Source: Acidobacteriota bacterium | Lineage (GTDB): Bacteria > Acidobacteriota > Terriglobia > Versatilivoradales > Versatilivoraceae | Reading direction: 5' to 3' | Assembly: GCA_022826755.1 (NCBI GenBank) | Contig: JAJDUG010000020.1 | Coordinates: 1 to 41,636, forward strand | Length of the DNA stretch: 41,636 nt | In this document: in pieces, positions 1 to 13,875 of the stretch | Layout: each line of letters opens with the position of its first letter | Position numbering within the stretch: the stretch's first letter is position 1 | Notes under the pieces: generated by a model | What the model saw: only the letters and a program-made list of their open reading frames with translations | Told to the model about the DNA's origin: nothing | Databases searched by the model: none | Position numbers and translations under genes: made by a program

Positions 1-357
1 TTGGTCGTGTCGCTGCTTCAGTTGGAACATCCGGACGAAATATGGCACCAGACCGGCGGTCCCGGCGACGGCGGTATCGACGGGCTTGGAAGCAACGAGA
101 AAGGCGAGGTGGTCGGGCTGATGCAAGCCAAACTTCGCACACGGTCAGCCCCAAAACTGGGAGGTCTTGGCCATTCCGATCGCGAGATCGTCCGCTATGC
201 CGCGGTATTGGTCCTCGAAGGACACGATCGGGAGACCGATGATAAAACCACGCTGCTGGACATTGAGTGGATCGCCAAAAAGTTGCGCTGTCATTGGCAT
301 AAACTCCCTCAAGCAGTCGCTATGCGTGTAGGTGAGCCAAACGGCCGCTTTCGGTAG
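1..357 (+). pseudogene. Mrr-like restriction endonuclease fragment, cut by the window edge
   Basis: The reading frame is open from the first base, so the N-terminus is missing or lies outside the window. Residues 11-45 carry the spacing of an Mrr-type catalytic core: an acidic-glycine stretch 'GDGGIDG' followed about 17 residues later by 'MQAK', matching the D...(E/Q)xK metal-binding pattern of restriction-endonuclease-fold proteins. After about residue 46 the translation no longer resembles that fold, and the opposite strand carries a more protein-like frame from 145 upward. I infer a truncated nuclease gene joined to another relic near 140. The 'RFR' C-terminus is probably not native. If real, it fits the defence-like content downstream. 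Confidence 0.35.
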
Positions 358-762
358 TTCAACATCAAGATGGCCGTCGTCGTCGAGTATGACGAGGCCA
401 TCTCCGCCTACATCGATCCTGGTTTGTCCGCCCGAAATTAGCTCCTTTGCTCGGGACAAGCCCACCGGCATCTTTGGGACAACCTCGGGCAGGCAAGCCG
501 GAATGTCGAAGTCTTTACGGTCGCATGAGACCAGCACCCTCTCGACCGCGCCCAGCGCCTTCTCCAGCCCTGGACAAGCTGAGATCCGGGTGCGGCCACG
601 CCAAGAGCGGCGATTCTTCGGCAAGCCATCGTTGGTGCCGATTTGGACACCGTCGCACGCCATGGAGGCCTCGATGTCGTCATGGAGAAGATCGTCCAAT
701 GGGAGCAGGTAAACCCGGCCTTCAACGGCTGAAGAATGATCGACGATTTCCGCCTCTGGGGG
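145..762 (-). pseudogene. Relic of an unrecognised gene, copy 1 of a duplicated sequence
   Basis: An open frame runs leftward from a TGA at 763-765 to a stop at 145. It has no clear ATG; the first usable start is a TTG at 699. Its beginning, 'PPEAEIVDHSSA...LLPLDDLLHDDIEASM', is closely matched on the same strand at 10010-10141 ('PPEAEIVDHSTA...LLPLDDFLNDGIEAAM'). In copy 2 the frame continues upstream through a GAA codon, while here the aligned position reads TGA, so this copy looks 5'-truncated by a nonsense change. The C-terminal half ('GFIIGLPIVSFEDQYRGIAD') is protein-like but I do not recognise it. The frame overlaps the Mrr-like frame at 145-357, and both cannot be intact. No function is assigned. 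Confidence 0.4.
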
Positions 763-1754
763 TCAAAGCGGTGGAGTCGGACCAACGCGCCACCCAAAAA
801 GCCACGGTGGCGCACAAGGGTGGGCGCGTGACTTCGCCCCCCCCAACGCTTTTCTCTCAGAGGGCGCAGCCCTCGCCGTTGTGGTCGAATGCTTCGCCGT
901 TGCGTCGCGCCATCGAGGGCTCGGTCATGGGAGAGGGAGAAGGGAGCGGCGGGGGTGATGGAGGGGCCGGGGGAGCGCTCTCCCCGGTCGGGGGTTCGAA
1001 GGGGCCGGAGCCCCTCGCCAGCCCCAATGTATTACATTGGGTAGGCTGGTTCCCCGGCACTACGCGTTGCGACACCGGCCCCGCTGTCCCCGCCTCACAC
1101 GGCGTAACGGACGAGGGGAGGGGGACAGGCAAGACGCAGCCTCGCTTCGCTGTTTCGCAGCGGACGCGGAAAATGCTTGCCATTGCGCGTTGCAAGGAAC
1201 CGAACAGACTCATCAATTGCTCACCGTAATAGTCTTTATTGTCACCCTAAAATCACGCCGATCCAATTATAATTCTTAGGTTTTGGCCGACCTACGTACT
1301 ACTAAAATCCCAGGTACCAAGGGTCATCGGACCCATAGGAAACGCAGCACAGAGCAAATAGGGGCCTCTTATTCCGGGGATTGGCCCCAAAGTCTCAGGT
1401 TACCCACAGGGGAGAAATCATGCGACCCCTGAGAGGAAAATCGCGCCTGTGGCAGTATCTGGCCCATCTTTAACAAGGCTTCCGGCTGCACGCTTATTAT
1501 CAACACGTTGCAAAGGGAAAAAGCGCAAGTGGCACTACAAACGCGTTGAAACCGAAGATTGCGGGGGCAAACGATCATCTTGCGGCCCCCCATGAGCGGG
1601 ATCGATCCCCAGGGCGTCGTAGATGGCTTTCCGATCGGTTTTAGCCCGAGTGGCCTTGCTGCCGCTTTTCGGCGCCGGACTCGACATGCGCCCGCCGCTG
1701 ACAGTGTCGTGTTCTGGTCAGGAGACGCTGCCAGCGTGAAAGGATTCAGAATAC
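763..1754. repeat. Gene-poor GC-rich stretch with dispersed repeat modules
   Basis: No convincing gene lies here; the open frames are compositional (Pro/Gly/Arg-rich). Four pieces recur elsewhere in the window. Positions 850-884 match 10212-10247. Positions 1110-1178 match 10287-10352 in inverted orientation, sharing 'gcggacgcggaaaa'. Positions 1200-1235 match 11564-11600 ('gaacagactcatcaa'). The 14-mer 'cccatctttaacaa' at 1463-1476, with 'gcacgcttatta' just after it, matches 13960-13973 and the inverted copy at 14049-14062. 'ccctaaaatcac' at 1244-1255 also recurs at 14011-14022. This is best read as debris of repeats or mobile elements upstream of the helicase gene. Confidence 0.55.
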
Positions 1755-4700
1755 GTGAGTATTCCGTCTGAAGAACTTGGCAGGCAACAGTCGGCGGGCA
1801 GCCCCGATTCAGGAATGGAGGCCAAGAGACGATTACTCCAGACGTTCACGTTTTTGAAGGAGTTGGCTGCGATCCGGAATCCGGTGCAGTGTAGGTTAGA
1901 TGACTATGACCAGTCCGATGTGTTCCGATTGGATTCGTGGCCCTTACACCCGTGCATCATAGTTCGGCGCGGCGACATGGCGAGCACCGAGGAAGAGAAC
2001 CAAGATGCTTCCGGGAAGGACATACCCCCCATCATCCGCATCACCCGTGCAGAACGGACCCAATGCCCCACACCGCCCCCGGTGCTGCAAGGATGGCTGA
2101 AGTCTGGTTGGGAATCCATCGACACCGAAGCTGATGTGCTGGAAGCCCGAAACCTTCCCGAGAGGGGCGGGCAAACCGTCACGGTGAGATTCACTGACGA
2201 CCATGAGCGAATTGTCCGCTTCGACAATTGGGTGGCCGCTCGGTCCCGCTGGGTTGACGCTGAACGACCCGCCGTGGAAGCACGCCGTCTCTTCGAGCGT
2301 GTCTACGGACTATGGACGCGGATGCAGCGCGACGGTGATCGTCTTGAGTTGGTCTTGGCTGACGGTTTGCTCTGTGTCGAAGAGCACCACCTCAAACACC
2401 CGGTATTGCTACAGCGCCTAACTCTGGAGTTTGACCCGACCGGCCCCGAGTTTCGCTTCTTCGCAGGAGTGGAGAAGATAGAACTTCAACGCGCCCTGCT
2501 TCGTCTCGTGCCGACGATTGAAGCGAGAATGATTGCTCACTTCGATGATCGACTTGAGAAGGAGCCGGTGGATCTGCTTGGTGGCGAGCGCACAGAGGGA
2601 TTCCTCAAGCGGCTCGTGCAGGGACTGTTCAGGGATGGCGAGTTTCTTGATTCAGAGCCCGGCGGCACCACTGACCGACCGTGCCTGTGGCGAGCCCCCA
2701 CGGTTTTCCTACGCCCCCGGACAGCGGGGCTCAGCGCAACTCTTGACCATATCATCGAGGATTTGCAAGACGAGTCAATCGATGTGCCCGAAGGGCTCGG
2801 CCGTATCGTCGGTGTGGAGATGGGTCCGACCGTCATCGACATGGGGGGAGAGGTACCGCCTGCGCCGGGCCCACAAACCGACATCCTTTTCAGCAAGCCA
2901 GCGAACGCGGAACAGCGTGAGATTGCCGCGCGCCTTGAGACGACCAAGTCCGTCGTCGTGCAGGGACCGCCAGGAACGGGAAAGACTCACACAATAGCAA
3001 ACCTTGTCGGTCACCTGCTATCGGAGGGTAGGACAGTACTCGTGACTGCCCATACTACGAAGGCATTGCGGGTGCTGCGTGGAAAAATCGATGAGGCTCT
3101 TCAGCCGCTCTGCCTCAGCGTGCTGGAAGGAGACAGCAAGAGCCAAGGGCAACTGTCCCACGCTGCTCAGGAAATCGCTCACCGACTGTCGGTCTCGGAC
3201 CCCCGGACTCTACGCCGAGAAGCCGCCGCGTTACGCAGCCACAGGAAGAAGTTGCTCGGTCGCGCGAAGAACGTACAGCGCCAACTCCGCGACGCGAGGT
3301 TCAGCGAAATCGATGAGGTCGTCGTGAGCGGCGAAGGCGTGGAGCCGATTGCAGCAGCCAAACTGGTGAAGGCAGGCGCACAGACGGATGCCTGGATTCC
3401 CGGCCCACTCGAACCCGGCGTGCTCTGCTCATTGGCGGACTCGGAGGTGCGAGATCTTTATGCCTTACAAGGCATCCTGACGCGCAGAGACGAGACACAC
3501 CTGGCTGTGCCCCAACCGGGTCTGGACAGAATCGTCACTCCCTCGGCTTTTCGACCGCTTGCGGACCAGCAGGCGAACGAGAACGAGCGAGCCAAGGCAC
3601 ATCGCCCGGAATTCTGGGACGAGAATCCTGCAACCGACTACACGCCCGACGACCTCCGGCGGCTTCACCAGGAGGTGAGGGACGCTGCAGAGTTTCTCGA
3701 CGAAGAGGAGAAGTGGCTCCGTGAAGCTCTCTATGCCGGTTGGCGTGGCGGCGAACTAAACTCCATGTGGCAGGACCTGATCGGGGTTATGGAGAACCTG
3801 TCCAGTCGGGCAGAGGCTGCTCATCGCCTAATGGTCGAGCATGGTCCCGAACTTCCGCCCGGCCAACCGGATCAAAAGATGGTCGGAATCCTCCAGCAGA
3901 TAGTCCAGTTCACAGAACGCCGCGGCAGTCTCGGACGTTGGACCCGATTCACGAAACCCAAGTGGCGTCGACTCATTGACGGCTGCGCGGTCAACGGGCA
4001 CCCGCCGCGGACAAAGGACGAGTTTCGAGCGTTGCTGGCCGATGCGCAATTGCGGCAAGGCCGGGAACACTTTCTTGCCCGGTGGCGTCGACTCGTGGAG
4101 ACTCTTGGCGGACCCGCGGCTGACACTCTGGGAAGTGCACCCGAACGTATCGCTAGAGGGTACGCGCCGGAGATCCGCAAACGACTGGAGTGGAGAGCGA
4201 ACGTGTGGACGCCACTGGAGGCCAAACTTCGGGACGTCGGATTTCGCTGGCGCGAATGGTTGGAGAGCCATCCGCCAACGGGCGGCAACCACGGTGATCT
4301 TGACCGTTTGCGGAGTGCGGTTTCCGACAGGTTGACCAACACGGTCGGAGCCCAGATCGCGCTGCTTCGGCAGGTCGAGCTCGCTGCGACACTCCAGGAG
4401 CAGAGGACGTACCTTGCGGGCTTCCCACAGAGCGACGTAGCTTCCAGACTCCAACGGGCTCAAGATGAATGGAATGTGGACGTGTACGAAGAATCGTACC
4501 GCGAACTCGCACGGCTTCACGGACTACAACCGATTTACGAGAAGCGACTCGAGTTGCTTACCAAGCTGGAGACAACCGCGCCCGCATGGGCGCGAGCCTT
4601 CGCCCGGCGGACGGCACCTCACGACGCCACGACACCGCCATCAGCTCCGGCCAACGCGTGGCTTTGGCGGCAATGGCAGCAAGAGTTGGAGAGGCGGGCC

Positions 4701-6440
4701 TCCACCTCCATGGATGAATTGCAGGATAAGCTCGACGACACAGACCGCGACGTTCAGCAGCTATCCGCCCGCATAATTGAATGCGAGACCTGGGCTGCTC
4801 AGTGCAACCGCACTGGCTTGGAGCAAAAACAGGCGCTCTTGGGCTTTGTGCAGACTATGAGAAAGGTCGGGAAGGCCACCGGCAGGGGCGCTCCCCGACT
4901 ACTGGCTCGTGCTAGGCAACTTCTCGCGTCAGCACGCAGCGCGGTACCGGTGTGGATCATGCCCCTGAACCGTGTCTACGAGAGTTTCGACCCGCGGACG
5001 ACGAGGTTCGATGTCGTGATCATTGACGAAGCCAGCCAGAGCGACGTGACTGCTTTGGCCGCTCTGTATCTTGCTCGAACTCACGTCGTGGTCGGCGATA
5101 AAGAACAGGTGACACCGGATGCCATCGGCCAAAGTGCCGACGACGTGCAACGTCTTATAGCAACCGAACTCCAGGACATTCCGAACAACCATCTCTATGA
5201 CGGCCAAACATCAATCTACGACCTTGCCGAAGCCTCATTTGGTGGTACCGTGGCTTTACGGGAACATTTCCGGTGTGTGCCCGACGTCATCCAGTTCAGC
5301 AACCACTTGTCCTACAACAACACTATCCGTGCACTCCGGGAACCCTACTCCTCGAATCTCGGTACTGCTGTGGTCCCGCAACGTGTGAACGGGTATCGGG
5401 AACCCCATACTAAGACGAACGAAGTCGAGGCAGAGGAGATCGCATCGTTGATTGTGGCCTGCTTGGACGAACCTGCTTATGTTAAGAACGAATTGGGAGA
5501 ACCAACCAGCTTGGGCGTGATTTCCCTTCTTGGTGATGAACAGGCGTACTTGATTGAAAGTATGCTCCGCCAACGTCTGCCTGTGGACGTTTTCGCCAAG
5601 CATCGGCTGCTGTGTGGAAACGCGGCGCAGTTCCAGGGCGACGAGCGAGATGTGGTTTTCCTGTCCATGGTTGATGGGCCTCCCCAAGATGGGAAGCTCT
5701 CGTTTCGGGGTGCTGGACCCAGGGATTTGTACAAGAAACGATACAATGTTGCGGTCAGTAGAGCACGCAACCAATTGTGGGTCGTGCACTCCGTTGATCC
5801 GGCCGGACACTTGAAGAGCGGCGACCTGCGGCGGCGACTCATCGAGCATGCGCGTGACCCGGTTGCGATATCGCGTGAGATAGAGGAGCAGGGCTCGCGC
5901 ACAGAATCCAAGTTTGAAAAACTCGTGCTGGAAAGGCTCTTGAACGCAGGATACCGAGTACGACCTCAATGGCGGGCGGGCAGCTACCGAATTGACCTCG
6001 TTGTCGAGGGTGCTGAGCACCGGTTGGCCGTAGAGTGTGACGGTGAACGTTTTCACACTCACGAGGAACTCCAACAGGACCTTGAGCGCCAAGCTGTGCT
6101 ACAACGACTCGGCTGGGTCTTCGTTCGTATTCGGGGCAGCCTGTTTTTCCGTGATCCCGATAGGGCCATGGAGCCGGTCTTTGGTAAGCTCAGAAACCTT
6201 AATATCGAACGACTTGGGCCGGCGGTGGACGAAGTTGCCCCGTCCTGGTGGGTCGAACGTCTGAGGCGACGCGCCGAGGTAATCCGCAGGCAGTGGGCAA
6301 GCGACGTGGAAGACGAGGAGGTGACGGCTCCACAACAGGACACAGGCATTGCGCGGGGAGGCAACGTAGCGTATGTAGCCGATTTGTGGGCTGACAGAAC
6401 CAGCTTGAGCCGTGCGCACTCGGAGAAGAGTGAGAGCTAG
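1755..6440 (+). CDS. SF1 (DNA2/UPF1-like) helicase with C-terminal endonuclease domain
   Basis: A 1561-residue single-polypeptide helicase-nuclease, probably acting on nucleic acid in the cytoplasm. Walker A 'GPPGTGKT' is at residues 404-411, Walker B 'IIDEASQS' at about 1089-1096, and the SF1 motif VI 'AVSRAR' at 1333-1338. A long insertion of nearly 700 residues, partly helical, separates motif I from motif II. The C-terminus from about 1385 is a Vsr/DUF559/MTES_1575-type nuclease fold: 'RIDLVVEG' with D1414, then 'VECDGERFH' with E1427 and D1429. The GTG start at 1755 follows AAAGGA by 11 nt; an ATG at 1818 is the alternative. Large helicase-plus-nuclease proteins of this design act as single-gene anti-phage systems in several families. 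That role is inferred from architecture and from the accessory setting. No methyltransferase or partner gene is adjacent. Confidence 0.88.
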   Translation: MSIPSEELGRQQSAGSPDSGMEAKRRLLQTFTFLKELAAIRNPVQCRLDDYDQSDVFRLDSWPLHPCIIVRRGDMASTEEENQDASGKDIPPIIRITRAERTQCPTPPPVLQGWLKSGWESIDTEADVLEARNLPERGGQTVTVRFTDDHERIVRFDNWVAARSRWVDAERPAVEARRLFERVYGLWTRMQRDGDRLELVLADGLLCVEEHHLKHPVLLQRLTLEFDPTGPEFRFFAGVEKIELQRALLRLVPTIEARMIAHFDDRLEKEPVDLLGGERTEGFLKRLVQGLFRDGEFLDSEPGGTTDRPCLWRAPTVFLRPRTAGLSATLDHIIEDLQDESIDVPEGLGRIVGVEMGPTVIDMGGEVPPAPGPQTDILFSKPANAEQREIAARLETTKSVVVQGPPGTGKTHTIANLVGHLLSEGRTVLVTAHTTKALRVLRGKIDEALQPLCLSVLEGDSKSQGQLSHAAQEIAHRLSVSDPRTLRREAAALRSHRKKLLGRAKNVQRQLRDARFSEIDEVVVSGEGVEPIAAAKLVKAGAQTDAWIPGPLEPGVLCSLADSEVRDLYALQGILTRRDETHLAVPQPGLDRIVTPSAFRPLADQQANENERAKAHRPEFWDENPATDYTPDDLRRLHQEVRDAAEFLDEEEKWLREALYAGWRGGELNSMWQDLIGVMENLSSRAEAAHRLMVEHGPELPPGQPDQKMVGILQQIVQFTERRGSLGRWTRFTKPKWRRLIDGCAVNGHPPRTKDEFRALLADAQLRQGREHFLARWRRLVETLGGPAADTLGSAPERIARGYAPEIRKRLEWRANVWTPLEAKLRDVGFRWREWLESHPPTGGNHGDLDRLRSAVSDRLTNTVGAQIALLRQVELAATLQEQRTYLAGFPQSDVASRLQRAQDEWNVDVYEESYRELARLHGLQPIYEKRLELLTKLETTAPAWARAFARRTAPHDATTPPSAPANAWLWRQWQQELERRASTSMDELQDKLDDTDRDVQQLSARIIECETWAAQCNRTGLEQKQALLGFVQTMRKVGKATGRGAPRLLARARQLLASARSAVPVWIMPLNRVYESFDPRTTRFDVVIIDEASQSDVTALAALYLARTHVVVGDKEQVTPDAIGQSADDVQRLIATELQDIPNNHLYDGQTSIYDLAEASFGGTVALREHFRCVPDVIQFSNHLSYNNTIRALREPYSSNLGTAVVPQRVNGYREPHTKTNEVEAEEIASLIVACLDEPAYVKNELGEPTSLGVISLLGDEQAYLIESMLRQRLPVDVFAKHRLLCGNAAQFQGDERDVVFLSMVDGPPQDGKLSFRGAGPRDLYKKRYNVAVSRARNQLWVVHSVDPAGHLKSGDLRRRLIEHARDPVAISREIEEQGSRTESKFEKLVLERLLNAGYRVRPQWRAGSYRIDLVVEGAEHRLAVECDGERFHTHEELQQDLERQAVLQRLGWVFVRIRGSLFFRDPDRAMEPVFGKLRNLNIERLGPAVDEVAPSWWVERLRRRAEVIRRQWASDVEDEEVTAPQQDTGIARGGNVAYVADLWADRTSLSRAHSEKSES

Positions 6441-6603
6441 CAGCTAGGGGGCGTCGCAAAGGCTGGATGTCCTGCCGCCCCGCGGGCTGCGTGTGTCCTT
6501 TGGACATCGTAGGCAGGGAGTAGACACCTCCGACGGAACCGGTGCTATCGGCCCTCGCGTCGGTTGCGTCCTGGTGTCCGGAATCGAGGTGTTGTCGACA
6601 TGG
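6441..6603. other. Short gap between convergent genes
   Basis: The helicase gene (+) and the DUF932 gene (-) converge here. 'gatgtcc' near 6467 and 'ggacatc' near 6503 form an inverted repeat with a loop of roughly 30 nt. There is no adjoining T-run, so it is only a weak terminator candidate. Confidence 0.2.
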
Positions 6604-7389
6604 TCAACGTGCAGCGTGGCGCCGGTCGGCGGGTCGTCGTCCGCTGAGCTTCCGGATCAACTCTGGAATATCAGCCTGCCTGCTGAGCCGCTCGTCAGCA
6701 TCGTTCCGGCGAGTAGCGACGAACGAGAGCGCCTGCGAAGCATCGTACTTCGTACGCGCAGGGGTCGGAGAACCGGCAACACGACCTCTTAGTCTAACCG
6801 GCTTCTCACTAGCCGCGCCCGGCGCGAAACTGTCGATCTCCACGTCATGACCTGTGCGGCAGATGTGAAGCACTCGCGCGGCAGCCCGTTTCCCCCACCG
6901 CTCGGTCACCGGACCGTCAACCCACGGCGCAAGGTCTTCGGCGGCAACGAGCGTCTGTTCCCACACTTCGAGCCGACGCCTATCCGCCTGAACCGCATGA
7001 AGAGATGGCGCGATGCGTTTGGAGATCGTCTCGATCTCCAACCGTTGTCCGTGCCGTTCTCGGATTTCGATCCTGCTCTCGCCGATCACCATGCCGTTCG
7101 CGCACACGAAGCGGTACCAGCCGAAGAGCACGATGAGCCGTGATGATCCGTCGACCGCATTGAAGCATTCGAGCCGAAGTTCGACCTTCTCGCCATGCGA
7201 ATCGCAGAGACCGAATTCGACGGGGAAATAGATGCGAAAGTTCATCCATTCGCCGAGTTGCGAGATGCCGACCTCGTAGCGCAGATTCTCCGGGTCGACG
7301 CCGGCGTCGACAAGTCCGTCGCGGCACCGCGTCGCCACGTCACGATGTTGTATGAGTGAGTAACGGTGTGACACGACACCGACCGGCAT
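6604..7389 (-). CDS. DUF932-family (phage/plasmid-like) protein, main fragment
   Basis: The 261-residue frame starts 'MPVGVVSHRYSLIQH' and contains 'FGWYRFVCANGMVIG'. This is the DUF932 pattern of a 'VVS-RY-liQ' strand followed by a 'V--NGM' segment, as in plasmid/phage proteins of unknown biochemical role. The start is internal to the family fold: the same frame continues upstream for 64 codons (7590-7396) and is interrupted only by a TAA at 7396-7398, eight nucleotides before this ATG. The full reading would be about 328 residues, a normal DUF932 length. Either the gene is a recent pseudogene, or the downstream ATG restarts translation, or the stop is an assembly error. The C-terminus is Arg-rich. 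No other plasmid replication gene is nearby. Confidence 0.6.
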   Translation of the reverse strand: MPVGVVSHRYSLIQHRDVATRCRDGLVDAGVDPENLRYEVGISQLGEWMNFRIYFPVEFGLCDSHGEKVELRLECFNAVDGSSRLIVLFGWYRFVCANGMVIGESRIEIRERHGQRLEIETISKRIAPSLHAVQADRRRLEVWEQTLVAAEDLAPWVDGPVTERWGKRAAARVLHICRTGHDVEIDSFAPGAASEKPVRLRGRVAGSPTPARTKYDASQALSFVATRRNDADERLSRQADIPELIRKLSGRRPADRRHAAR

Positions 7390-7395
7390 TGGTCG

Positions 7396-7590
7396 TTAAA
7401 CGGCGGAGAGAGGCTTGCGCAATACCGTCAGGAGAAACGGATTCGGGGGTTCCCCCGAACCCGCACGAAACGGCACAGTCTCGAATTGTGGGAGAACGGA
7501 GAGGACTTTTTCCCAGACGCCAGCATAGTACCGCACCTCACGGGACCGCCAGCGCAGCGTCTCCCGTTGGATCTGTAACGTGCCGTTCAT
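7396..7590 (-). pseudogene. N-terminal piece of the DUF932 gene, ended by an in-frame TAA
   Basis: A 64-residue frame begins at an ATG (7590) preceded by GAGG with four intervening bases, so this is the likely native start of the gene. The frame ends at TAA (7396-7398) after 'LLTVLRKPLSAV' and continues without a shift into 'RPMPVGVVSHRYSLIQ' of the main fragment. One base substitution would restore a single protein. I see no homology to anything else. Confidence 0.5.
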
Positions 7591-8030
7591 TTTGCCTCGA
7601 TCCTCATCCGTCGACTGCCCACACCAACAAGGAAAGCAAAGATAAAGATCAACTTCCCTCTGTCGGCATTTCAGTCAACCATGATTCTCATCAGATACTC
7701 CCTATTTCCGCGAGCGTTGCAAGCCTGGCTGCTGTTTCTCGGCCTTTGGCATACCAGAGTACCCCAATACCCTCTCGCGGACCGATTTTTGTCTCAGAGA
7801 CACCCAGTCTTACGGCCCGTGTGGAACCTGAGTATCTCAGACTGATCTCCGGAAAAAGGAGGCCCAGATTTACCCTGACCTGTATTTTTTGGGTCTGACG
7901 CCCCTAAGGACATGGGATGTTTGGAGATGTCCAGGGTCTTTTCCGATTCTGGAATATGAAACAGGAAACAAGAGCGCCAAGGCGATCTGCTTCCACATTG
8001 AGAATCACCCTCTGAGAGAAAGGCAAACGA
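7591..8030. other. Intergenic stretch of 440 bases without a recognised gene
   Basis: Divergent genes flank this gap (DUF932 leftward, DUF4145-like rightward), so promoters for both should lie here, but I find no convincing -35/-10 pair. The region is less GC-rich than its surroundings. The open frames in it are not protein-like. A GAGAGAAAGG run at about 8013-8022 serves as the ribosome binding site of the gene starting at 8031. Confidence 0.3.
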
Positions 8031-8939
8031 ATGGCTAACGACGAAAACTGGGAAACCTACCCTTATATAGGAACGGTTATGGTTAAAAAGGGTTATAGCG
8101 ATGATCACGGAGAAATATGGACGTATGCGTTTGGAACGGCTGGTCAGTCAGACCAGTGGCCGGGTAAGAATTTATGTCAAGCGTTGGCATGGATAGTACA
8201 GCAACTACACCTCGGGAATTACGAGGTCCGCGGCGAAGAGGACGGCGAAGTCGTCTCTGTGTTGATCGGGCAAGGTGCACCACTTAATGGCGGAGTTGAA
8301 GATAAGGCGCTGGGAGAGTTCACCGAGGCACTGAACAAGCATCTCCATGAACGTTCAGAGGCGGTGAACTTGTGCGGCATATTCGCACAGGCGAGAGAGC
8401 AAGGAATCCAACCAAAGTTCGAGAAAACGGCAGAGAAGGTCAAAAGGGCCGCCAAAATTGGTATGTACGCCAATACTGAAATCCACTATGCGTTCCAACT
8501 CATCGGCATTCTCAAGAGGATTCGGGAAAGAAGTTTTGTGCTGGATTCACCCCCCATCTTGGGAAGAGCGCCCCGTCCTGTTGTGCAGTTGCTGGGAGAG
8601 GCCACACGCTGTCACTTGCATGGCTTCCATCAAGCTTGTGTTGCTATCTGCAGGGCTTGCCTCGAACAGTCGTTAAAAGAGCGGGTCCCTCAACACGAGT
8701 TGCTTCAGGAACGGTGGAACAATCCGAAAAGCGGAGAGTTGGAGTGTCTTATCAGCGGAGCACTCCGTGTGGGCTCTTTAGACGGTCCCCGCCGCCAAAT
8801 GGCGGACGAGATTCGGAAAAACGGCAACGTTGTATTGCACCGCATGCAGGAGCCCGGTGAGGATTCCTGGGACATCTTGCAGCACACCAGAGGTGTTGTG
8901 TCCTACCTGTACCGGAACGCAGGTGAGGCAGCACAGTAG
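8031..8939 (+). CDS. DUF4145-like protein with an extra N-terminal domain
   Basis: A 302-residue soluble protein. The C-terminal half (about residues 185-300) follows the DUF4145 pattern: helical 'LLGEATRCHLHGFHQACVA', an arginine-containing 'CRACLEQSL', then 'IRKNGNVVLH' and a closing helix 'TRGVVSYLYR'. DUF4145 domains are HEPN-like helical modules frequently found near or fused to restriction and defence enzymes. The N-terminal 90 residues ('ENWETYPYIGTVMVKKGY...') look like a small beta-rich domain that I do not recognise. Start ATG has a good GAGAGAAAGG site. The gene stands alone between the broken DUF932 gene and the EEP gene. A defence role is possible from context but not shown. Confidence 0.65.
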   Translation: MANDENWETYPYIGTVMVKKGYSDDHGEIWTYAFGTAGQSDQWPGKNLCQALAWIVQQLHLGNYEVRGEEDGEVVSVLIGQGAPLNGGVEDKALGEFTEALNKHLHERSEAVNLCGIFAQAREQGIQPKFEKTAEKVKRAAKIGMYANTEIHYAFQLIGILKRIRERSFVLDSPPILGRAPRPVVQLLGEATRCHLHGFHQACVAICRACLEQSLKERVPQHELLQERWNNPKSGELECLISGALRVGSLDGPRRQMADEIRKNGNVVLHRMQEPGEDSWDILQHTRGVVSYLYRNAGEAAQ

Positions 8940-9072
8940 ATTCTGGCGTGCTATGGTATGCCAGAGACCGGGGCAACGCATTCTGCCCGGCCAAGCTCAC
9001 GGAGTAGGGGGTGTCTAATGAAACAGTGAGCAGCATTGATCGTCTACGCCGCCTCCGCTAGGGAAATGTCCC

Positions 9073-9981
9073 ATGCTAATCTTGTCCTGGAACGTCCACT
9101 TTCAATCCCTGTCCAGTCAACTCGATAACGTCGTCGAGGCTATCCGGTCCGCAAGACCGGACGTCGTGACGTTGCAGGAGGTAAAGACGAGCCTGGCGGA
9201 CGATATGGCGCTCCGTCTCGCCGAAATCGGCCTTGTCCACGCCCACTGGAGCGGCAAGAAGGCCCCACCCACGGCAATGCGGAGATTGCCGGCGATCGGC
9301 AGGTTGAAGCGGAAAACCTACCAGTGCCTGATTGCGAGTCGCTGGCCAATGAAAGCCAGCGGCAATCGTTGGCGCCGTCGCGCACCTTTTCCGGAGTTGC
9401 TGGCGCGTACCACGGTGTCCCTGCCCGACGAGCACAAAATCGACGTGTTCACCGTGCACATCCCCAACGGCTCCGGTCATGGCTGGCGGAAGATCGACAC
9501 CTTCACCGTGCTGTCGGCAACGCTACGCCGTGCACTCGACTCGCCCCGCATCCTGACCGGAGACTTCAACGAGCCCAAGCGGTTCCGACAATCGGGACAG
9601 ATCGTGCCTTTTGGAGAGAAAATTCACGAGGATGGAGGCACGTCCATCCGGGGCTGTAAGACCCAGTTTGGAGTCCGGCGCCGAAATATGGAGCGGGCCA
9701 ATGGTGTGCGTTCGGTCCTGGCCGGGGCGTCGCAGCACGGTCTGCGAGATGCCTATCGCGACCTTCACGGCTTTGAGACAGCCACCCCCGTCACCCACTA
9801 CACCACGCGTAAGAACCCGAGATGCTTCGACCATACTTTCGTCTCAAGGCACTTCGAGGTCGTGGCCTGCGGCTACTACCACGAATGGCGCAAACAGGGG
9901 TGGAGCGATCATTCGGCGATGTGGACGAAGCTCACCTTTCGCGACAAGATCCCGGAGTTGATTGAATGGGAGATGGAATGA
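9073..9981 (+). CDS. Endonuclease/exonuclease/phosphatase (EEP) family hydrolase
   Basis: A 302-residue metal-dependent phosphodiesterase of the DNase I/exonuclease III fold. All fold motifs are in order: 'SWNVH' (N7), 'LQEV' (E36), 'VHIPNGSG' (H130), 'TGDFNEP' (D165, N167), 'FDHTFVS' (D254, H255) and the terminal 'WSDHSAMW' (D280, H281). The catalytic set is therefore complete and the enzyme should be active. The substrate (DNA, RNA, phospholipid or phosphoinositide) cannot be read from the sequence. There is no signal peptide, so it is probably cytoplasmic. AGGGAAA lies just upstream of the ATG. Its 3' end is overlapped on the other strand by a gene relic. It sits in the accessory region, away from the DNA-repair genes of the housekeeping half. 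Confidence 0.85.
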   Translation: MLILSWNVHFQSLSSQLDNVVEAIRSARPDVVTLQEVKTSLADDMALRLAEIGLVHAHWSGKKAPPTAMRRLPAIGRLKRKTYQCLIASRWPMKASGNRWRRRAPFPELLARTTVSLPDEHKIDVFTVHIPNGSGHGWRKIDTFTVLSATLRRALDSPRILTGDFNEPKRFRQSGQIVPFGEKIHEDGGTSIRGCKTQFGVRRRNMERANGVRSVLAGASQHGLRDAYRDLHGFETATPVTHYTTRKNPRCFDHTFVSRHFEVVACGYYHEWRKQGWSDHSAMWTKLTFRDKIPELIEWEME

Positions 9982-9989
9982 CACGCTGG

Positions 9990-10192
9990 CAGGTGTGGTA
10001 ACGATTGGGAAACCCGTCCCACGTCATGGCAGCTTCGATGCCGTCGTTCAGAAAATCATCCAATGGGAGCAGGAAACGCCGGCGTCCACGGGCCGTGGAA
10101 TGATCGACGATTTCCGCCTCAGGGGGTTCAAGCAGATGCCGCCGTATGGGTGAAACAGGTACAAAGTAGCGATGTTCACCCAGCCGTTTCAT
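9990..10192 (-). pseudogene. Relic of the unrecognised gene, copy 2
   Basis: The frame from an ATG at 10192 reads 'MKRLGEHRYFVPVSPIRRH' and then 'PPEAEIVDHSTA...LLPLDDFLNDGIEAAM', matching copy 1 at about 660-762 on the same strand. Similarity ends at about 10010, where the frame runs antisense into the EEP gene. This copy is therefore 3'-truncated, while copy 1 has lost its 5' end. The two copies overlap for about 40 residues. The original protein is not recognised. Confidence 0.4.
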
Positions 10193-10723
10193 GATTTCGA
10201 CACCCACAAAGCCCTTCTCTCGAAGGGCGGAGCCCTCCCCGTTGTGGTGCGAGACTTCCCGAAATGCCACGTCAGACGCGGAACGGCAAGCCTTTTCCGC
10301 GTCCGCTTGTAGCAAGCTATGCGAGGCTGCGCCTCGCGTGTCCCCCTCCCGCCCGGAGCGGCGGCCCGCCGCACGAGAGGGGTGCTGGTGGAGTGAGTGC
10401 GCCCCTCTTATTGAGCGCTGGTGCGGCACCGGGCAGGGGGAAGTGGGCCACGTCGCCCTCGCCTTTTCGGGGGTCGCTCCCTCCACCGTGATCCCTGCGG
10501 ACGTTATCTTCCATTGATTTAACGCATTGTATACAGGTGAGTTATGGATTCTCAGACGGCAACTCGCCCCCCCCATTATGCCCCCAGAAAAAGCAGATTT
10601 CCTGTTAGTCTGATGCCAGCATCCCCCTGTTGTCTGTCAACATGGTAGGGATTGAACCGCGCGTCGCCGGCTCAGCGTTGCGGCATCTCGACTGTCCGCT
10701 CGAGCCGCGTCCGAGGAAGCACC
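10193..10723. repeat. Repeat-bearing gap between copy 2 relic and the YdeI-like gene
   Basis: Holds the module at 10212-10247 that matches 850-884 in direct orientation, and the module at 10287-10352 that matches 1110-1178 in inverted orientation. The remaining GC-rich sequence (10353-10490) has only low-complexity frames. No gene is supported. Confidence 0.5.
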
Positions 10724-11311
10724 ATGCCGCTCCGATTCTTTGCCAACGCCGAGGAACTCAGGGATTGGTTCCGTGACCATCACGACAAGCTGGACGAACA
10801 GTGGATCGGTTTCTACAAGAAGCACACGGGGAAACCGAGTATCGACTGGTCACAGTCGGTCGACGTTGCGCTCTGCTTCGGCTGGATCGACGGTCTCCGC
10901 AAGAGTCTCGGCGCCACGAGCTACAAGATCCGGTTCACGCCACGCCGGGCGGGGAGCCGCTGGAGCAAGCGCAACCTCTCGCGCATGGAGGCCCTCATGG
11001 CCGAAGGGCTCGTGGAAGAGGCCGGGCTCGCGGTGTTCCAGGCCCGCGACACGTCCTTGCGGGACTACCGGACGGCCGCCTGGACCCTGCCCGCGTCGCT
11101 GGAGAAACGGATCCGAGCCCGTCCCAAGGCATGGGGCTTCTTCCGAGCCACCCGGCTGTCGTACCGAAAGGGCGCATCGGCCTGGATCAACAGCGCCAAG
11201 AAGGAGGAGACCCGTCTCCGAAGGCTGGACCAGTTGATCGAGTGCTGCGAGCGCGGTGAGCCGGTCCCCCCGCTGCGCTGGGGCGGCAGCTCGGTCAGCA
11301 AGCGGGACTGA
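10724..11311 (+). CDS. YdeI/OmpD-associated family protein
   Basis: A 195-residue protein counted from the ATG at 10724, which follows GAGGAAG by four bases; an in-frame start at 10652 lacks such a site. The family pattern is clear: 'LRDWFRDHHDKLDEQWIGFYKK', a conserved 'DVALCFGWIDGLRKS' and 'RFTPRRAGSRWSKRNL'. The C-terminal helical part ends in 'INSAKKEETRLRRLDQLIE'. The family (DUF1801/YdeI-like, 'bacteriocin-protection' in some databases) is widespread and often laterally transferred; its biochemistry is not settled. No signal peptide or membrane segment. It lies directly upstream of an integrase relic, so it may be cargo of the same element. Confidence 0.85.
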   Translation: MPLRFFANAEELRDWFRDHHDKLDEQWIGFYKKHTGKPSIDWSQSVDVALCFGWIDGLRKSLGATSYKIRFTPRRAGSRWSKRNLSRMEALMAEGLVEEAGLAVFQARDTSLRDYRTAAWTLPASLEKRIRARPKAWGFFRATRLSYRKGASAWINSAKKEETRLRRLDQLIECCERGEPVPPLRWGGSSVSKRD

Positions 11312-11387
11312 CCGGGGTTCAGGCCGTGGAGTCCATCCGCCGGCCGGGGGAGGCGCAACGAACAGAACTGACGGATCGCCTGTGATT

Positions 11388-11525
11388 GCAGGTACCTCCA
11401 ACCGCAACCGGGTCGAGGCGGCCTATCCCTGCTCGGGCCTATTCGACCGCAGGCATGTCCTGATGGACGACTGGGCGCGCTACCTGGCCCAAGGGATGGG
11501 GGAGGACCAGGAGCTGTGCGAGTAA
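11388..11525 (+). pseudogene. C-terminal remnant of a P4-type tyrosine integrase
   Basis: The frame reads 'NRNRVEAAYPCSGLFDRRHV' followed by 'LMDDWARYL' and a TAA stop at 11523-11525. This is the characteristic tail of P4-type integrases: a VEAAY-like segment with the region of the catalytic tyrosine, then an R-R..LM..WA.YL helix. Only about 45 residues remain, with no catalytic core upstream. I infer debris of an integrative element. A matching N-terminal-domain piece lies at 14150-14250 on the other strand. Confidence 0.45.
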
Positions 11526-11677
11526 CGAGGCCCGTGGATCTTGCCGCTGTGCGGTGCAGCGCGTCGAACAGACTCATCAAATGCTCACCAATATAGTCTC
11601 TCCATTCACACCAATCTCATGTAGATCCTGCTATATTCCTTAGCCTACCGTCGCCCAAGTACCAAAAGAGTGACTCC
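11526..11677. repeat. Intergenic repeat module shared with 1200-1320
   Basis: 'gaacagactcatcaa' and the 'tgctcacc..atagtct' that follows repeat the sequence at 1200-1235 in direct orientation, and weaker similarity continues to a 'gtaccaa' string. The rest of the interval 11312-11677, apart from the integrase scrap, carries no gene. Confidence 0.4.
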
Positions 11678-11731
11678 ATGGAATGGTTTGGGATAGCGGT
11701 GATCCTCAGCCTGCTGGGGATCATCACTTGA
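11678..11731 (+). CDS. Candidate 17-residue hydrophobic peptide
   Basis: ATG at 11678, preceded by AAGAG with seven intervening bases, opens the frame 'MEWFGIAVILSLLGIIT' and stops at TGA 11729-11731. Nearly the whole peptide is one short hydrophobic helix. It sits 22 nt before a second small membrane-protein frame. Such short frames arise by chance, so it is only a candidate. Confidence 0.3.
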   Translation: MEWFGIAVILSLLGIIT

Positions 11732-11753
11732 ACGTCATGCGATGGGTCGAAAG

Positions 11754-11891
11754 ATGACTGACCTCTGGACCATTCTTGGGGCCATTCTTGGGGGTGCGGT
11801 GGTCGTGGTGGTCTACATCCTGGTTCTGTTCCCGGAGGCCATCCTGCTGGATCTGGGAGCGTGGTTTTCTTGGCGCAAGAAGAAAGAGTGA
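11754..11891 (+). CDS. Candidate 45-residue single-span membrane protein
   Basis: ATG 11754 to TGA 11889-11891. The frame begins 'MTDLWTILGAILGGAVVVVV', which runs into an uninterrupted transmembrane helix (about residues 5-27), then an amphipathic stretch ending 'WFSWRKKKE'. The basic C-terminus would remain on the cytoplasmic face. The length and layout match bitopic small proteins. The start has only a weak upstream purine run. It lies between two other candidate genes of an apparent small cluster (11678-12269) in accessory DNA. Function unknown; toxin-like or regulatory peptides have this shape, but nothing here proves it. Confidence 0.45.
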   Translation: MTDLWTILGAILGGAVVVVVYILVLFPEAILLDLGAWFSWRKKKE

Positions 11892-11990
11892 AAAGCGAGA
11901 TCTTCCTGGACTGCAGGATGAGGGATCGCTCTACGGGCTGGCCGGCCGCAGATCTTACGCGACAACAACGCGAAAAATGGAGACACGCAA

Positions 11991-12269
11991 GTGATCTATC
12001 GGTTTACCCAAAGCGGGATCTCCACTTTTGCACCCGATACTTCAGGCGTGTACTCGATTATGAATAGTCAGGGAGGGACCATCTATGTTGGTGAATCTGC
12101 TTATATTCAGAGCAGGTTGTCTGACCACCACAACCGTACCTCCGACCAAGGCACCTGCATCTGGAGTTACTACCCTGCTCGATTCAGCTTCAGGGAGCTT
12201 CCCTCCTACCGGAGACTTCAGGTGGAGCGGGCAATGAAAAACCGCTTGAATCCGCCTTGCAACCTGTAG
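11991..12269 (+). CDS. Small GIY-YIG-like domain protein
   Basis: A 92-residue protein from a GTG start preceded by GGAGA. Residues 19-47 fit the GIY-YIG nuclease core: 'SGVYSIMN' in place of GIY, 'TIYVGES' in place of YIG, and 'IQSRLSDHHN' carrying the conserved arginine and the following histidines. The C-terminal half ('YRRLQVERAMKNRLNPPCNL') resembles the end of single-domain GIY-YIG proteins, where 'E..LI..LNP..N' is typical; here E78 may be the metal-binding glutamate. The size suits a stand-alone domain. Role unknown; such proteins occur in mobile and defence DNA as well as in repair. Confidence 0.6.
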   Translation: MIYRFTQSGISTFAPDTSGVYSIMNSQGGTIYVGESAYIQSRLSDHHNRTSDQGTCIWSYYPARFSFRELPSYRRLQVERAMKNRLNPPCNL

Positions 12270-12471
12270 CCATCCCCGCTCCATCGATCTTCCCGATCAG
12301 CTTCGCGAAGTAGATGTCCAGCCCATTGACGGTGATCACGATCTTGAAAGATGGATACGGAAACGTCTTGACTATCGACAGGGGAAATTCCAGCCCTCTC
12401 CGCTGTGCTCGCAACCATCGTCAGAGAAACATTCAGCCAGTTGGCGTTGGCGCCGGAAAGAGAGCCACTGC
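12270..12471. other. Gap with a protein-like scrap on the minus strand
   Basis: Reading leftward from about 12410, one frame gives 'FKIVITVNGLDIYFAKLIGK', which looks more like a folded protein than chance sequence, but it has no recognised family and runs antisense into the GIY-YIG gene. No other feature is seen in the gap. Confidence 0.2.
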
Positions 12472-13875
12472 ATGAAAATCACCACTTTAGTGACTTGCCT
12501 GGCTTTCGTGTTCGGTTGGGCGACGGAGTTGCTTGCGCAATTCGTGCCCGTAATCGCCAAGCAGAGAAGCATCCACTATCTGATTCAGTCTGATGAAACC
12601 GAAGTGGAAGTAATGCGAGAGGAGGGACGTTACTTCCGACTTCCGGCAGGTTACAAGATCGATGACTCTACATGGATGGAAGAGACCGTCCTCGAGATCT
12701 ACGCCGCCGGTACTCCGAAGCATGAAACACCGGCAGGAACAGAGGGGGAGGTGTCTCGGGGCAAACAGCGCGACACCCTGCCGGACGTGGCGCTCACGCG
12801 GCTCGACGGCGTCGAGGAACGGCTGTCCGACTATCGGGGACGAATCGTGCTGCTCGATTTCTGGGCCACATGGTGCGGGCCGTGTGTTGCGGCCCTGCCG
12901 AAGATCCGGGAACTGGTTGCCAAGCTGCCGGCCGACCGGTTCGCCCTGGTCGGGATCAGTGTGGACGAGGAGCTTGGGACGGTGACCCGATTTGTTGAGG
13001 ATGAGGCGATGCCGTGGACGAACTGCCACGCGGGTGAGGGGAGCGAACTGGCGCGTCTCCTCCGGATCAGAAGCCTTCCGACCTATGTGCTGGCCGACGA
13101 GAACGGCAAGATTTTGACCCGTACCGGGGGGCTGATCCCCCCGTTCATTTCCCTTGTCGAAGAGGCAGTGGACCACCTGGGGAAATTCGGAAGCACCCGT
13201 AGACTTGATTTCGATGCCATGGCCCTGCGCGCCGGTCTGAGCGACCCCGATGCTCGGGGTGGGGGGGCAGGAGCCATGAGATTTTCCTTCTACAGGATGG
13301 CGGTCGTCTTTGGCGTGATGGCAGTCCTTTGCCTGACCATCGGTTTGCGCGGTCTTCTGACCAAACGACCTTTCCTGTTCCCGGCAAGGTGGCTGTTTCT
13401 CTTTATCATGGCAATGTTCCTTGGCCCCATGGTTACACTTTTTCCATTTTCGTGGCCCTTGCAGACTATGGATTGGATACCCCTTCTGATGCTGCCGATG
13501 ATGGCTGTGTTCATGTGGATTCAACTCAAAGGCTACCTGGCGTTCGGCGTTACCGAGAGATCCTTCAGGGAGGGACTGCTGGCGGCGCTCGAGAAACTGC
13601 AGTTGCCCTGCGAAGAGAGCCTCTCCTCGATACGTCTGACCTCGCTGGGAGTCGATCTGCAGGTGGCTATTCAGTCGTGGATGGGAAGTGGACAGATCAA
13701 GGTCAGGAAGGGGCGCCACGGCCACCTGCTCAAGGAGATCGTCCAGGCAATGCACAAGCACTTCCGCACCTCCGCCGTGGAAACCAATATGATCTCCTGC
13801 GTCTTATACCTGATACTGGGGATCATGATGCTTCTCATGGTAGTGGCCACGTTGTTCCGTTGGGGCCCGCTTTAG
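12472..13875 (+). CDS. TlpA/ResA-like thioredoxin with C-terminal membrane domain
   Basis: A 467-residue envelope protein. An N-terminal hydrophobic signal (about residues 3-22, ending 'ELLAQ') exports a thioredoxin domain at about 105-245 with the redox motif 'WCGPC' (W134, C135, C138) and the cis-proline loop 'SLPTYVLAD'. This indicates a thiol-disulfide reductase outside the cytoplasmic membrane. Between the signal and the thioredoxin fold lies an unrecognised 80-residue segment. After residue 268 come about three hydrophobic helices (roughly 272-350), a soluble part of about 90 residues and a last helix near 440-462. That membrane region is not part of standard TlpA/ResA proteins, which are usually 140-200 residues. 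No cytochrome maturation genes adjoin it. The substrate is unknown. Confidence 0.75.
   Translation: MKITTLVTCLAFVFGWATELLAQFVPVIAKQRSIHYLIQSDETEVEVMREEGRYFRLPAGYKIDDSTWMEETVLEIYAAGTPKHETPAGTEGEVSRGKQRDTLPDVALTRLDGVEERLSDYRGRIVLLDFWATWCGPCVAALPKIRELVAKLPADRFALVGISVDEELGTVTRFVEDEAMPWTNCHAGEGSELARLLRIRSLPTYVLADENGKILTRTGGLIPPFISLVEEAVDHLGKFGSTRRLDFDAMALRAGLSDPDARGGGAGAMRFSFYRMAVVFGVMAVLCLTIGLRGLLTKRPFLFPARWLFLFIMAMFLGPMVTLFPFSWPLQTMDWIPLLMLPMMAVFMWIQLKGYLAFGVTERSFREGLLAALEKLQLPCEESLSSIRLTSLGVDLQVAIQSWMGSGQIKVRKGRHGHLLKEIVQAMHKHFRTSAVETNMISCVLYLILGIMMLLMVVATLFRWGPL

What the first reader, a model, noticed from the sequence alone, without database searches (positions are those of the whole stretch)
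1755..6440. Stand-alone 1561-residue helicase-nuclease, candidate single-gene defence system
An SF1 helicase with a nearly 700-residue insert between motifs I and II and a C-terminal Vsr-like nuclease, in a region of relics and repeats and with no partner gene. The design matches known single-protein anti-phage helicase-nucleases, but the middle insert shows no domain I recognise.
Basis: partly seen in the sequence, partly recalled or inferred. Interest (0 to 1): 0.55.

Follow-up and report, generated by a model that had tools for sequence, protein, structure and literature searches.

The report
Stand-alone helicase-nuclease, likely phage defence
This gene makes one large protein that joins a DNA/RNA-unwinding motor to a DNA-cutting enzyme; it belongs to a widespread but uncatalogued branch of a known defence-protein family, and some relatives sit next to a gene for a single-stranded-DNA-binding protein, which hints at how such enzymes might be switched on.

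Summary
The ORF at 1755-6440 is real: 1561 codons, intact SF1 motifs and an intact C-terminal MTES_1575 (Vsr-like) nuclease. Twelve relatives from several phyla are co-linear with it. The motor is UPF1/Sen1/Dna2-like. The ~600-residue middle is an all-helical arm inserted after Walker A. It is not peculiar to this gene: it is homologous throughout the branch, and CnuH of type III-B CoCoNuTs, also Vsr-fused, is described with such an insertion.

It is not a member of Hhe, ProA/PDC-S37 or CoCoNuT: it scores far below the curated cut-offs, lacks DUF4011 and DUF3320, and has no McrBC-type partner in the sequence at hand. On the tree it lies in a separate clade.

Distribution is patchy (0 of 6 congeners). 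Six of 12 relatives lie near established defence genes, against 1 of 8 control regions (not significant). In 4 of 12, at two places of the tree, a YdbC/PC4 ssDNA-binding gene abuts the helicase gene; no match was found in this genome.

Best reading: an autonomous ssDNA-translocating nuclease that restricts phages or plasmids, triggered by exposed or wrongly coated ssDNA. Domain anatomy is shown; activity, substrate and defence are inferred.

The parts
1755..6440 (+). helicase-nuclease gene, 1561 aa (P0001)
   Evidence: open frame; 12 co-linear relatives
1755..2894 (+). N-terminal domain (residues 1-380): no Pfam match; mixed alpha/beta AlphaFold model of residues 1-386, pLDDT 79.1; no Foldseek match at E<=0.001 in PDB
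2904..3134 (+). first half of RecA-like domain 1 (residues 384-460)
   Evidence: AAA_11 match
2964..2987 (+). Walker A GPPGTGKT, residues 404-411
   Evidence: sequence and alignment
3135..4943 (+). helical arm inserted between Walker A and Walker B (residues 461-1063; 76% helix, 2% strand in the model)
5025..5036 (+). Walker B DEAS, residues 1091-1094
5247..5789 (+). RecA-like domain 2 (AAA_12), with motif V QGDERD (1294-1299) and motif VI NVAVSRA (1331-1337)
   Evidence: motif names recalled
5913..6188 (+). MTES_1575 / DUF559 Vsr-like nuclease, residues 1387-1478
   Evidence: 99.4 bits, cut-off 38.2
5994..6041 (+). codons of the predicted catalytic residues D1414, E1427, D1429 (RIDLVV ... ECDGERFH)
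   Evidence: alignment; catalytic role recalled from the PD-(D/E)xK/Vsr fold
340..1190 (.). dispersed composite repeat upstream of the gene, including a gene relic (340-886) and a hairpin-bearing segment (about 929-1104)
6604..7389 (-). DUF932 gene downstream, opposite strand (neighbour, not shown to belong)
8031..8939 (+). gene with a DUF4145 match just at the cut-off (23.1 bits; a HEPN family by the literature), neighbour
9073..9981 (+). endonuclease/exonuclease/phosphatase-fold gene, neighbour

Best explanation
A single-protein, ATP-driven nucleic-acid degrader that protects the cell against phages or other mobile DNA. The UPF1/Dna2-like SF1 motor loads on exposed single strands and translocates, inferred 5'->3'. 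The helical arm, together with the N-terminal domain, holds or senses the substrate or the protein coating it. The C-terminal Vsr-like nuclease cuts the strand that is fed to it. Activity is held back until single-stranded DNA appears that is unprotected or carries a foreign ssDNA-binding protein. In one set of relatives the neighbouring YdbC protein supplies a cognate ssDNA binder that guides or restrains the enzyme. Shown here: domain content, intact catalytic motifs, the motor's structural class, the helical arm and its conservation, patchy distribution, and the YdbC adjacency in relatives. Inferred: polarity, DNA rather than RNA substrate, the trigger, and anti-phage activity itself.
For: Intact motor and nuclease motifs. 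The model of residues 372-1508 matches Senataxin, Dna2, Sen1, UPF1 and IGHMBP2 (Foldseek E 5e-10 to 1e-8; VIA Z 15-17.5 over roughly 350-400 residues), and phmmer finds the same proteins. Best profile relatives are anti-phage ProA, PDC-S37 and Hhe. Patchy distribution: 0 of 6 congeners; 15 of 396 phylum genomes at E<=1e-40, own genome and partial or wider relatives included. The gene lies left of window position 11406, where alignment to the congener G396 (92-95% identical to the right of it) stops except for repeats. Near relatives: type III res and Shedu (L008), a type III res tail (L009), AbiE (L010), type III R-M with an EVE-HNH gene (L014), McrBC with McrC 9.5 kb away (L035), type I R-M 6.5 kb away (L041). 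A YdbC/PC4 gene abuts the gene in 4 of 12 and matches solved YdbC/SP_0782 proteins by sequence. Precedent: Hna and Nhi, single-protein helicase-nucleases, respond to phage SSB, and Dna2 is controlled by Rpa (PMC13381803 abstract and Discussion; PMC12904381 passages; PMC4716839 abstract).
Against: No activity is shown. The defence-neighbour excess is not significant (6 of 12 versus 1 of 8, Fisher p=0.16), and neighbours were scanned unevenly. None of the window's own neighbours that I scanned is a recognised defence gene (10 frames with Pfam; 1 with PADLOC). 8 of 12 relatives, and the window, have no YdbC next door, and none was found in the own genome, although that search had no positive control. 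YdbC also sits behind hsdR in a Niallia plasmid, beside conjugation genes and beside a hydrolase gene, so it is not exclusive to this family. L036 has lost the nuclease E (ECDG to LCDG) while keeping the motor, so cutting may be dispensable there. UPF1-like motors also act on RNA. In the VIA ranking coronavirus nsp13 and UvrD tie with the UPF1 group, so the subclass rests more on Foldseek and sequence.
Confidence: 0.55

Rival explanations
1. RNA-directed defence: the UPF1-like motor and Vsr-like nuclease work as a stand-alone CnuH-like enzyme that degrades RNA during infection, as proposed for CoCoNuTs.
For: CnuH of type III-B CoCoNuTs has the same layout: UPF1-like core, large helical insertion after Walker A, Vsr-like nuclease fused directly (PMC11090510 passages). 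Structural matches include UPF1, Sen1 and Senataxin, which act on RNA.
Against: No McrB/McrC-type partner is near: the only PF10117 match in the own genome is on another contig, and DUF2357 gave no match in the own genome while it did in 1 of the 11 genomes searched, that of L005 (its 14 control genomes were silent). The partner seen in relatives is a YdbC/PC4 ssDNA binder. [quoted passage not shown]
Confidence: 0.2
2. A DNA-repair or replication-fork processing nuclease of the Dna2 kind, carried as an accessory gene, without a defence role.
For: Dna2 is among the closest solved structures and works with an ssDNA-binding protein (PMC4716839 abstract). Some relatives sit in surroundings that look like housekeeping genes (L036, L037, L042; read).
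Against: Not found in 6 of 6 congeners, which is unusual for a core repair enzyme; half of the co-linear relatives lie near defence genes; the nearest profile relatives are named anti-phage.
Confidence: 0.15
3. A part of a mobile element (element maintenance, or exclusion of competing elements) that travels with repeats and DUF932-type genes.
For: The gene lies in a variable segment at a contig end, beside dispersed repeats. One relative is on a 50-kb plasmid, 1.8 kb from an integrase gene. A DUF932 gene lies next to this gene and a weakly similar one next to L035.
Against: The repeats occur throughout the genus, whose other 6 genomes lack the gene. Among the 10 frames of the first 14 kb given to Pfam there is no transposase or integrase; the only recombinase seen is at 28083-29003. 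One phage record matched, partially, and the viral-contig scan, which finds close relatives only, found none.
Confidence: 0.1

Closest known systems
CnuH of type III-B CoCoNuT systems (UPF1-like helicase with fused Vsr-like nuclease; PMC11090510)
   Same: UPF1-like SF1 core, large helical insertion right after Walker A, Vsr-like PD-(D/E)xK nuclease fused directly to the helicase (passages read)
   Different: CnuH is encoded with CnuB/CnuC (McrB/McrC) and CnuA and has an N-terminal wHTH plus OB-fold. Here no such neighbour was seen and the N-terminal domain found no clear match. I did not fetch or compare a CnuH sequence.
ProA (NCBIfam NF058533) / PDC-S37 (PADLOC PDLC05009)
   Same: AAA_11/AAA_12 motor with MTES_1575 nuclease, and an insert at the same position (Walker A to DEAS spacing 624-637 in 12 of the 13 ProA-like rows grouped P on the tree, 849 in the other)
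   Different: The one ProA-type protein given to Pfam, L086, carries DUF4011 and DUF3320, which P0001 lacks. The ProA-like rows form a separate, fully supported clade. P0001 scores 236 bits against a cut-off of 1500.
Hhe (NCBIfam NF042953, DUF4011 anti-phage protein)
   Same: motor and nuclease half align (best stretch, residues 975-1486)
   Different: 164 bits against a cut-off of 2000; no DUF4011
MTES_1575 of Microbacterium testaceum, the namesake of the nuclease family (PMC3710099 passages)
   Same: SF-I helicase and Vsr-type REase in one protein
   Different: also carries HEPN, transglutaminase and two wHTH (DUF3320) domains, none of which Pfam finds in P0001
Hna and Nhi single-protein helicase-nucleases
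   Same: one protein with helicase and nuclease; reported to respond to phage ssDNA-binding proteins
   Different: Hna is an SF2 helicase; Nhi matches only marginally (PADLOC E 0.0068)
Dna2
   Same: UPF1-like motor in one protein with a nuclease; depends on an ssDNA-binding protein (PMC4716839 abstract)
   Different: nuclease at the other end of the protein, eukaryotic, no helical arm of this size (all recalled)

Membership tests
UPF1-like SF1 helicases | two RecA domains with SF1 motifs and a UPF1/Sen1/Dna2-like fold | tested here: met
   Pfam AAA_11/AAA_12; phmmer; Foldseek and VIA hits, nsp13 and UvrD tied in VIA; motifs
MTES_1575 (Vsr-like REase) | score above Pfam gathering cut-off with catalytic D and E/D residues | tested here: met
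   99.4 bits versus 38.2; D1414, E1427, D1429
ProA / PDC-S37 | score above the curated ProA cut-off (1500 bits) | tested here: not met
   235.8 bits, while 6 of 396 phylum genomes hold a match over the cut-off
ProA / PDC-S37 | DUF4011 and DUF3320 domains | tested here: not met
   neither in P0001; both in ProA member L086, the only one scanned
ProA / PDC-S37 | phylogenetic position inside the ProA clade | tested here: not met
   P0001 in a clade of 16 rows (100/99), 13 ProA-like rows a clade (100/100); the program warned of the long branch of the paralogue L002 and of uneven composition in 6 rows
ProA / PDC-S37 | homologous helical insert | tested here: inconclusive
   hhalign probability 5%, E 0.007 over 99 columns; better than 6 of 6 shuffled or reversed controls but weak
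Hhe | score above the curated cut-off (2000 bits) and DUF4011 | tested here: not met
   164.2 bits, no DUF4011
CoCoNuT type III-B (CnuH) | large helical insertion after Walker A and fused Vsr-like nuclease | tested here: met
   model, Pfam; definition from passages of PMC11090510
CoCoNuT type III-B (CnuH) | operon with McrB/McrC homologues CnuB/CnuC | tested here: not met
   PF10117 in the own genome only on contig C61, not C59; DUF2357 none in the own genome, 1 of 11 genomes searched; caveat: the contig begins 1754 bases upstream of the gene
CoCoNuT type III-B (CnuH) | N-terminal wHTH and OB-fold | tested here: inconclusive
   AlphaFold model of residues 1-386 has beta strands but no clear PDB match
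Mokosh type II (MkoC) | PLD nuclease domain fused to the helicase (recalled) | tested here: not met
   the nuclease is MTES_1575, and no PLD model is among the Pfam hits; MkoC's best stretch is residues 1079-1367, in the motor
Any anti-phage system | protection against phage that depends on both active sites | not testable with these tools
   needs a phage challenge

The most novel reading that the evidence does not exclude
This branch is a two-layer immune module in which a host-encoded ssDNA-binding protein (YdbC/PC4) marks or guards self single strands. The autonomous helicase-nuclease then destroys single strands that are bare or coated by a foreign SSB, so self/non-self is read from the ssDNA coat. 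Stand-alone members such as the one in the window would use the general host SSB instead.
Probability: 0.2. Interest if true: 0.7.

Novelty: new variant of a known kind. Interest (0 to 1): 0.42.

Why it matters
It adds an uncatalogued branch, found in several bacterial phyla and on one 50-kb plasmid, to the growing group of single-protein helicase-nucleases thought to watch over single-stranded DNA. It also supplies a testable lead on the trigger: a linked ssDNA-binding gene at two places of the tree. If the link is functional, it would address how such nucleases spare the host chromosome.

Tried and rejected
Membership of ProA/PDC-S37, Hhe, Mokosh and CoCoNuT was tested and rejected (see Membership tests). 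A first search for the CnuC N-terminal domain used the wrong accession (PF04411: no match in 5 genomes or in the controls); it was repeated with PF09823.

A link between the arm and ProA's insert was tested by hhalign with 5 shuffled and 1 reversed control and stays inconclusive. The first attempt, against one ProA-like sequence, gave probability 2%. For the ProA set, L094 (a stop inside) was not used, and L099, L101 and L102 fell out because the motif pair was not found.

A fold for the N-terminal domain: Foldseek against PDB had no match at E<=0.001 (best 0.29), the VIA second look had no Z>=5 (best 4.9 over 49 residues), and a profile search of PDB sequences found none. This does not show that the fold is new.

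RNA families in 1-12500: none at gathering score. Relatives in viral contigs: none. Phage records: 1 partial hit. Papers: 'PDC-S37' 0, 'MTES_1575' 4, 'DUF4011' with 'phage' 2. Searches for ProA did not show the paper behind the NCBIfam name. So I cannot say that nothing on this branch is in print, only that these searches and those did not show it. Passages of PMC10250203 and PMC12409362 were seen and gave nothing on this branch.

Defence context. Neighbours were scanned unevenly: 10 with Pfam, 10 with PADLOC (one from the window), 29 of the 70 listed with PADLOC, and L041 by its deposited annotation. One search gives a tally, so apart from AbiEii in L010 its hits (one protein each for AbiEi, PDC-S01, PDC-M19A, PDC-M19B, WYL, mad3 and others) are not tied to a locus; I take AbiEi to be the gene before AbiEii. 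The count '6 of 12' uses R-M, AbiE, Shedu and McrBC only; PDC candidates, WYL and the MkoA-like neighbour of L035 are left out. In L035 McrC rests on PF10117, but McrB and the HNH gene are my reading of the sequence. Flank lengths differ between loci. Control: 12 regions fetched, 8 used with 96 proteins of at least 150 residues; L073 (short contig), L074, L078 and L083 (3-6 kb from a relative) were dropped before scoring, and L062, listed, was not used. Four of the 8 (L075, L077, L079, L082) lie on the contig of a relative, 15-30 kb off. The control hit 45 families (25 shown), among them one REase_I protein, PDC-S27, PDC-S33, ZorD, DpdE, an RtcR-type regulator and DndA/SspA; I counted only the REase_I.

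YdbC elsewhere: 29 plasmid records match; I opened 5, one without annotation.

Relatives left out of the set of 12: L007 (residues 376-520 missing), L011-L013 (longer or rearranged), L015, L016, L020/L039, L031 and L032 (fragments), L021 (interrupted frame), L043 (partial coverage), and the wider relatives L022-L030 and L034.

On checking I corrected one point of fact: the record of L042 is labelled a plasmid but has 2.6 Mb, the size of a chromosome, so only one clear plasmid carries a full-length relative.

Full report
Observation. The gene is real and intact. The frame 1755-6440 gives 1561 residues without a stop. Pfam places AAA_11 at 384-505, AAA_12 at 1165-1345 and MTES_1575 at 1387-1478. 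Walker A begins at 404 and DEAS at 1091, 687 residues apart; QGDERD (1294), NVAVSRA (1331) and the nuclease motifs (RIDLVV at 1412, ECDGERFH at 1427) are intact. The window is a whole contig of its genome and starts 1754 bases upstream of the gene.

Relatives. Genome scans, whole-genome searches and plasmid records gave relatives. L041 is a 50-kb plasmid; L042 is labelled a plasmid but has 2.6 Mb. Over these and P0001, 118 columns are invariant, 98 of them in the motor and nuclease by my count of the list; the arm (521-1065) is 18-43% identical to P0001, the stretch 1066-1370 43-72%. One member, L036, has lost the nuclease glutamate. On a tree of the motor-nuclease half, P0001 pairs with the Gemmatimonadota protein (100/100) inside a clade of 16 rows (100/99: the 13 plus L011, L012, L043), apart from 13 ProA-like rows (100/100); the program warned of the long branch of the paralogue L002 and of uneven composition in 6 rows. 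None of 6 congeners gave a match, and to the left of window position 11406 the congener G396, 92-95% identical on the other side, aligns only with repeats.

The insert. The AlphaFold model of residues 372-1508 (pLDDT 79.7, pTM 0.48, 9 sequences) shows residues 461-1063 as 76% helix and 2% strand: a long helical arm. The low pTM means that the placing of the domains is unsure. Walker A-B spacing, counted to three residues before DEAS, is 675-712 in the 10 of 12 co-linear relatives where the motif search placed both, 672-708 in 9 wider relatives, 300 in a short paralogue of the own genome and 1452 in L013. The arms of the branch and of six wider relatives are homologous over 577 columns (hhalign probability 100, E 1e-52), with four null controls. 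ProA-like inserts sit at the same place with a spacing of 624-637 (counted to DEAS) in 12 of 13, but homology is undecided. The literature describes a large helical, partly coiled-coil insertion after Walker A in CnuH helicases, with a Vsr-like nuclease fused in type III-B (PMC11090510, passages read).

Fold of the motor and of the N-terminus. By Foldseek the motor resembles Senataxin, Dna2, Sen1, UPF1 and IGHMBP2 best, as phmmer does; in the VIA ranking Sen1, IGHMBP2 and UPF1 lead but nsp13 and UvrD tie with them. The N-terminal 386 residues give a fair model (pLDDT 79.1) without a convincing PDB match.

Known families. NCBIfam ProA scores 236 bits against a cut-off of 1500, Hhe 164 against 2000; PADLOC's best is PDC-S37 with 226 bits. 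For scale, a full-length PDC-S37 match in G325 of the same phylum scores 1434 bits, and 1315 with ProA, itself below that cut-off; 6 of 396 phylum genomes pass the ProA cut-off. L086, one of these, carries DUF4011 and DUF3320, which P0001 lacks. The protein is thus a relative, not a member.

Neighbourhoods. Among the 12, established defence genes lie near 6: L008 (type III res, Shedu, and a WYL gene directly downstream), L009 (tail of a type III res gene, by similarity to that of L008), L010 (AbiEii, with AbiEi), L014 (type III R-M, EVE-HNH), L035 (McrC 9.5 kb away by PF10117; McrB and HNH read from sequence) and L041 (type I R-M, 6.5 kb upstream). L005 and L038 have candidate PADLOC genes (PDC-S01, PDC-S06). 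L036, L037 and L042 look like housekeeping surroundings (read), though the tally holds candidate hits not tied to a locus. In 8 control regions with 96 proteins one protein matched a type I restriction subunit, besides candidate and generic matches. 6/12 against 1/8 gives p = 0.16: suggestive only, and the scanning was uneven.

A recurrent partner. In L008, L009 and L041 a 73-75 residue gene ends 2-6 bases before the longest open frame of the helicase gene (14 bases before the deposited start in L041); in L042 a homologue follows and overlaps it by 21 bases. It matches YdbC and SP_0782 entries of the PDB and is annotated PC4/YdbC ssDNA-binding in L041. L008, L009 and L041 form one clade (100/100) and L042 lies elsewhere, so the link arose at least twice or was lost elsewhere. 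It is not exclusive: YdbC follows hsdR in a Niallia plasmid and sits in unrelated surroundings in other records. No match was found in the own genome (without a positive control).

Mechanism. Hna is an SF2 exonuclease held inactive as a dimer and freed by a phage SSB (PMC13381803, abstract and Discussion). Nhi, Hachiman and the Eco8 retron are also linked to phage SSBs (PMC12904381, passages). Dna2 is governed by Rpa (PMC4716839, abstract). Together with the YdbC gene this favours an enzyme that reads the state of single-stranded DNA. RNA as substrate stays open, since UPF1-like motors act on RNA too and CoCoNuTs are predicted to target RNA. None of this is shown for P0001.

Verdict. A new variant of a known kind: an uncatalogued, patchily spread branch of UPF1-like helicase / Vsr-like nuclease proteins, probably defensive, with an interesting ssDNA-binding partner in part of the branch. 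Confidence 0.55 in the main mechanism; interest 0.42.

Noticed in passing
window 340-1190: Composite dispersed repeat with matches in 7 of 7 genomes of the genus (38 in the own genome, the query itself included; 51 in G396). A segment near 929-1104 keeps a CCCAATGTA/TACATTGGG hairpin with one compensatory change in copy L117 (read); 340-886 is a relic of a gene whose frame is open in other copies, 390 codons stop to stop in L122.
   Followed up: partly
window 1-357: Open frame cut by the contig start, ending just before the repeat; contains GGIDG...QAK, which reads like a PD-(D/E)xK restriction-enzyme tail (recalled motif). No Pfam match; PDB only weak hits (E 0.5 or worse) to unrelated proteins.
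   Followed up: partly
own genome C33:36737-38887 (L002): A second, shorter AAA_11/AAA_12 helicase with an MTES_1575 match just below cut-off and a DUF559 match above it, and only 300 residues between Walker A and B.
   Followed up: partly
L013 7431-16094: Relative of 2887 residues in an Anaerobiospirillum bin, with Walker A-B spacing of 1452: a further insertion within the arm.
   Followed up: no
L036 7942-12498: Relative with intact motor but nuclease motif ECDGxxxH changed to LCDG without H: a natural nuclease-dead candidate.
   Followed up: no
L037 5014-10272: Relative with a DksA/TraR-type zinc finger at the end of a C-terminal extension: variable tails in this branch.
   Followed up: no
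window 6604-7389 and L035 5521-6516: DUF932 gene next to the helicase in the window; a weakly similar gene (31% over 51 residues) lies upstream of the relative in L035.
   Followed up: partly
L104 1986-5195: YdbC/PC4 ssDNA-binding gene 45 bases behind hsdR in a Niallia plasmid: YdbC genes may be a more general companion of DNA-defence operons.
   Followed up: no
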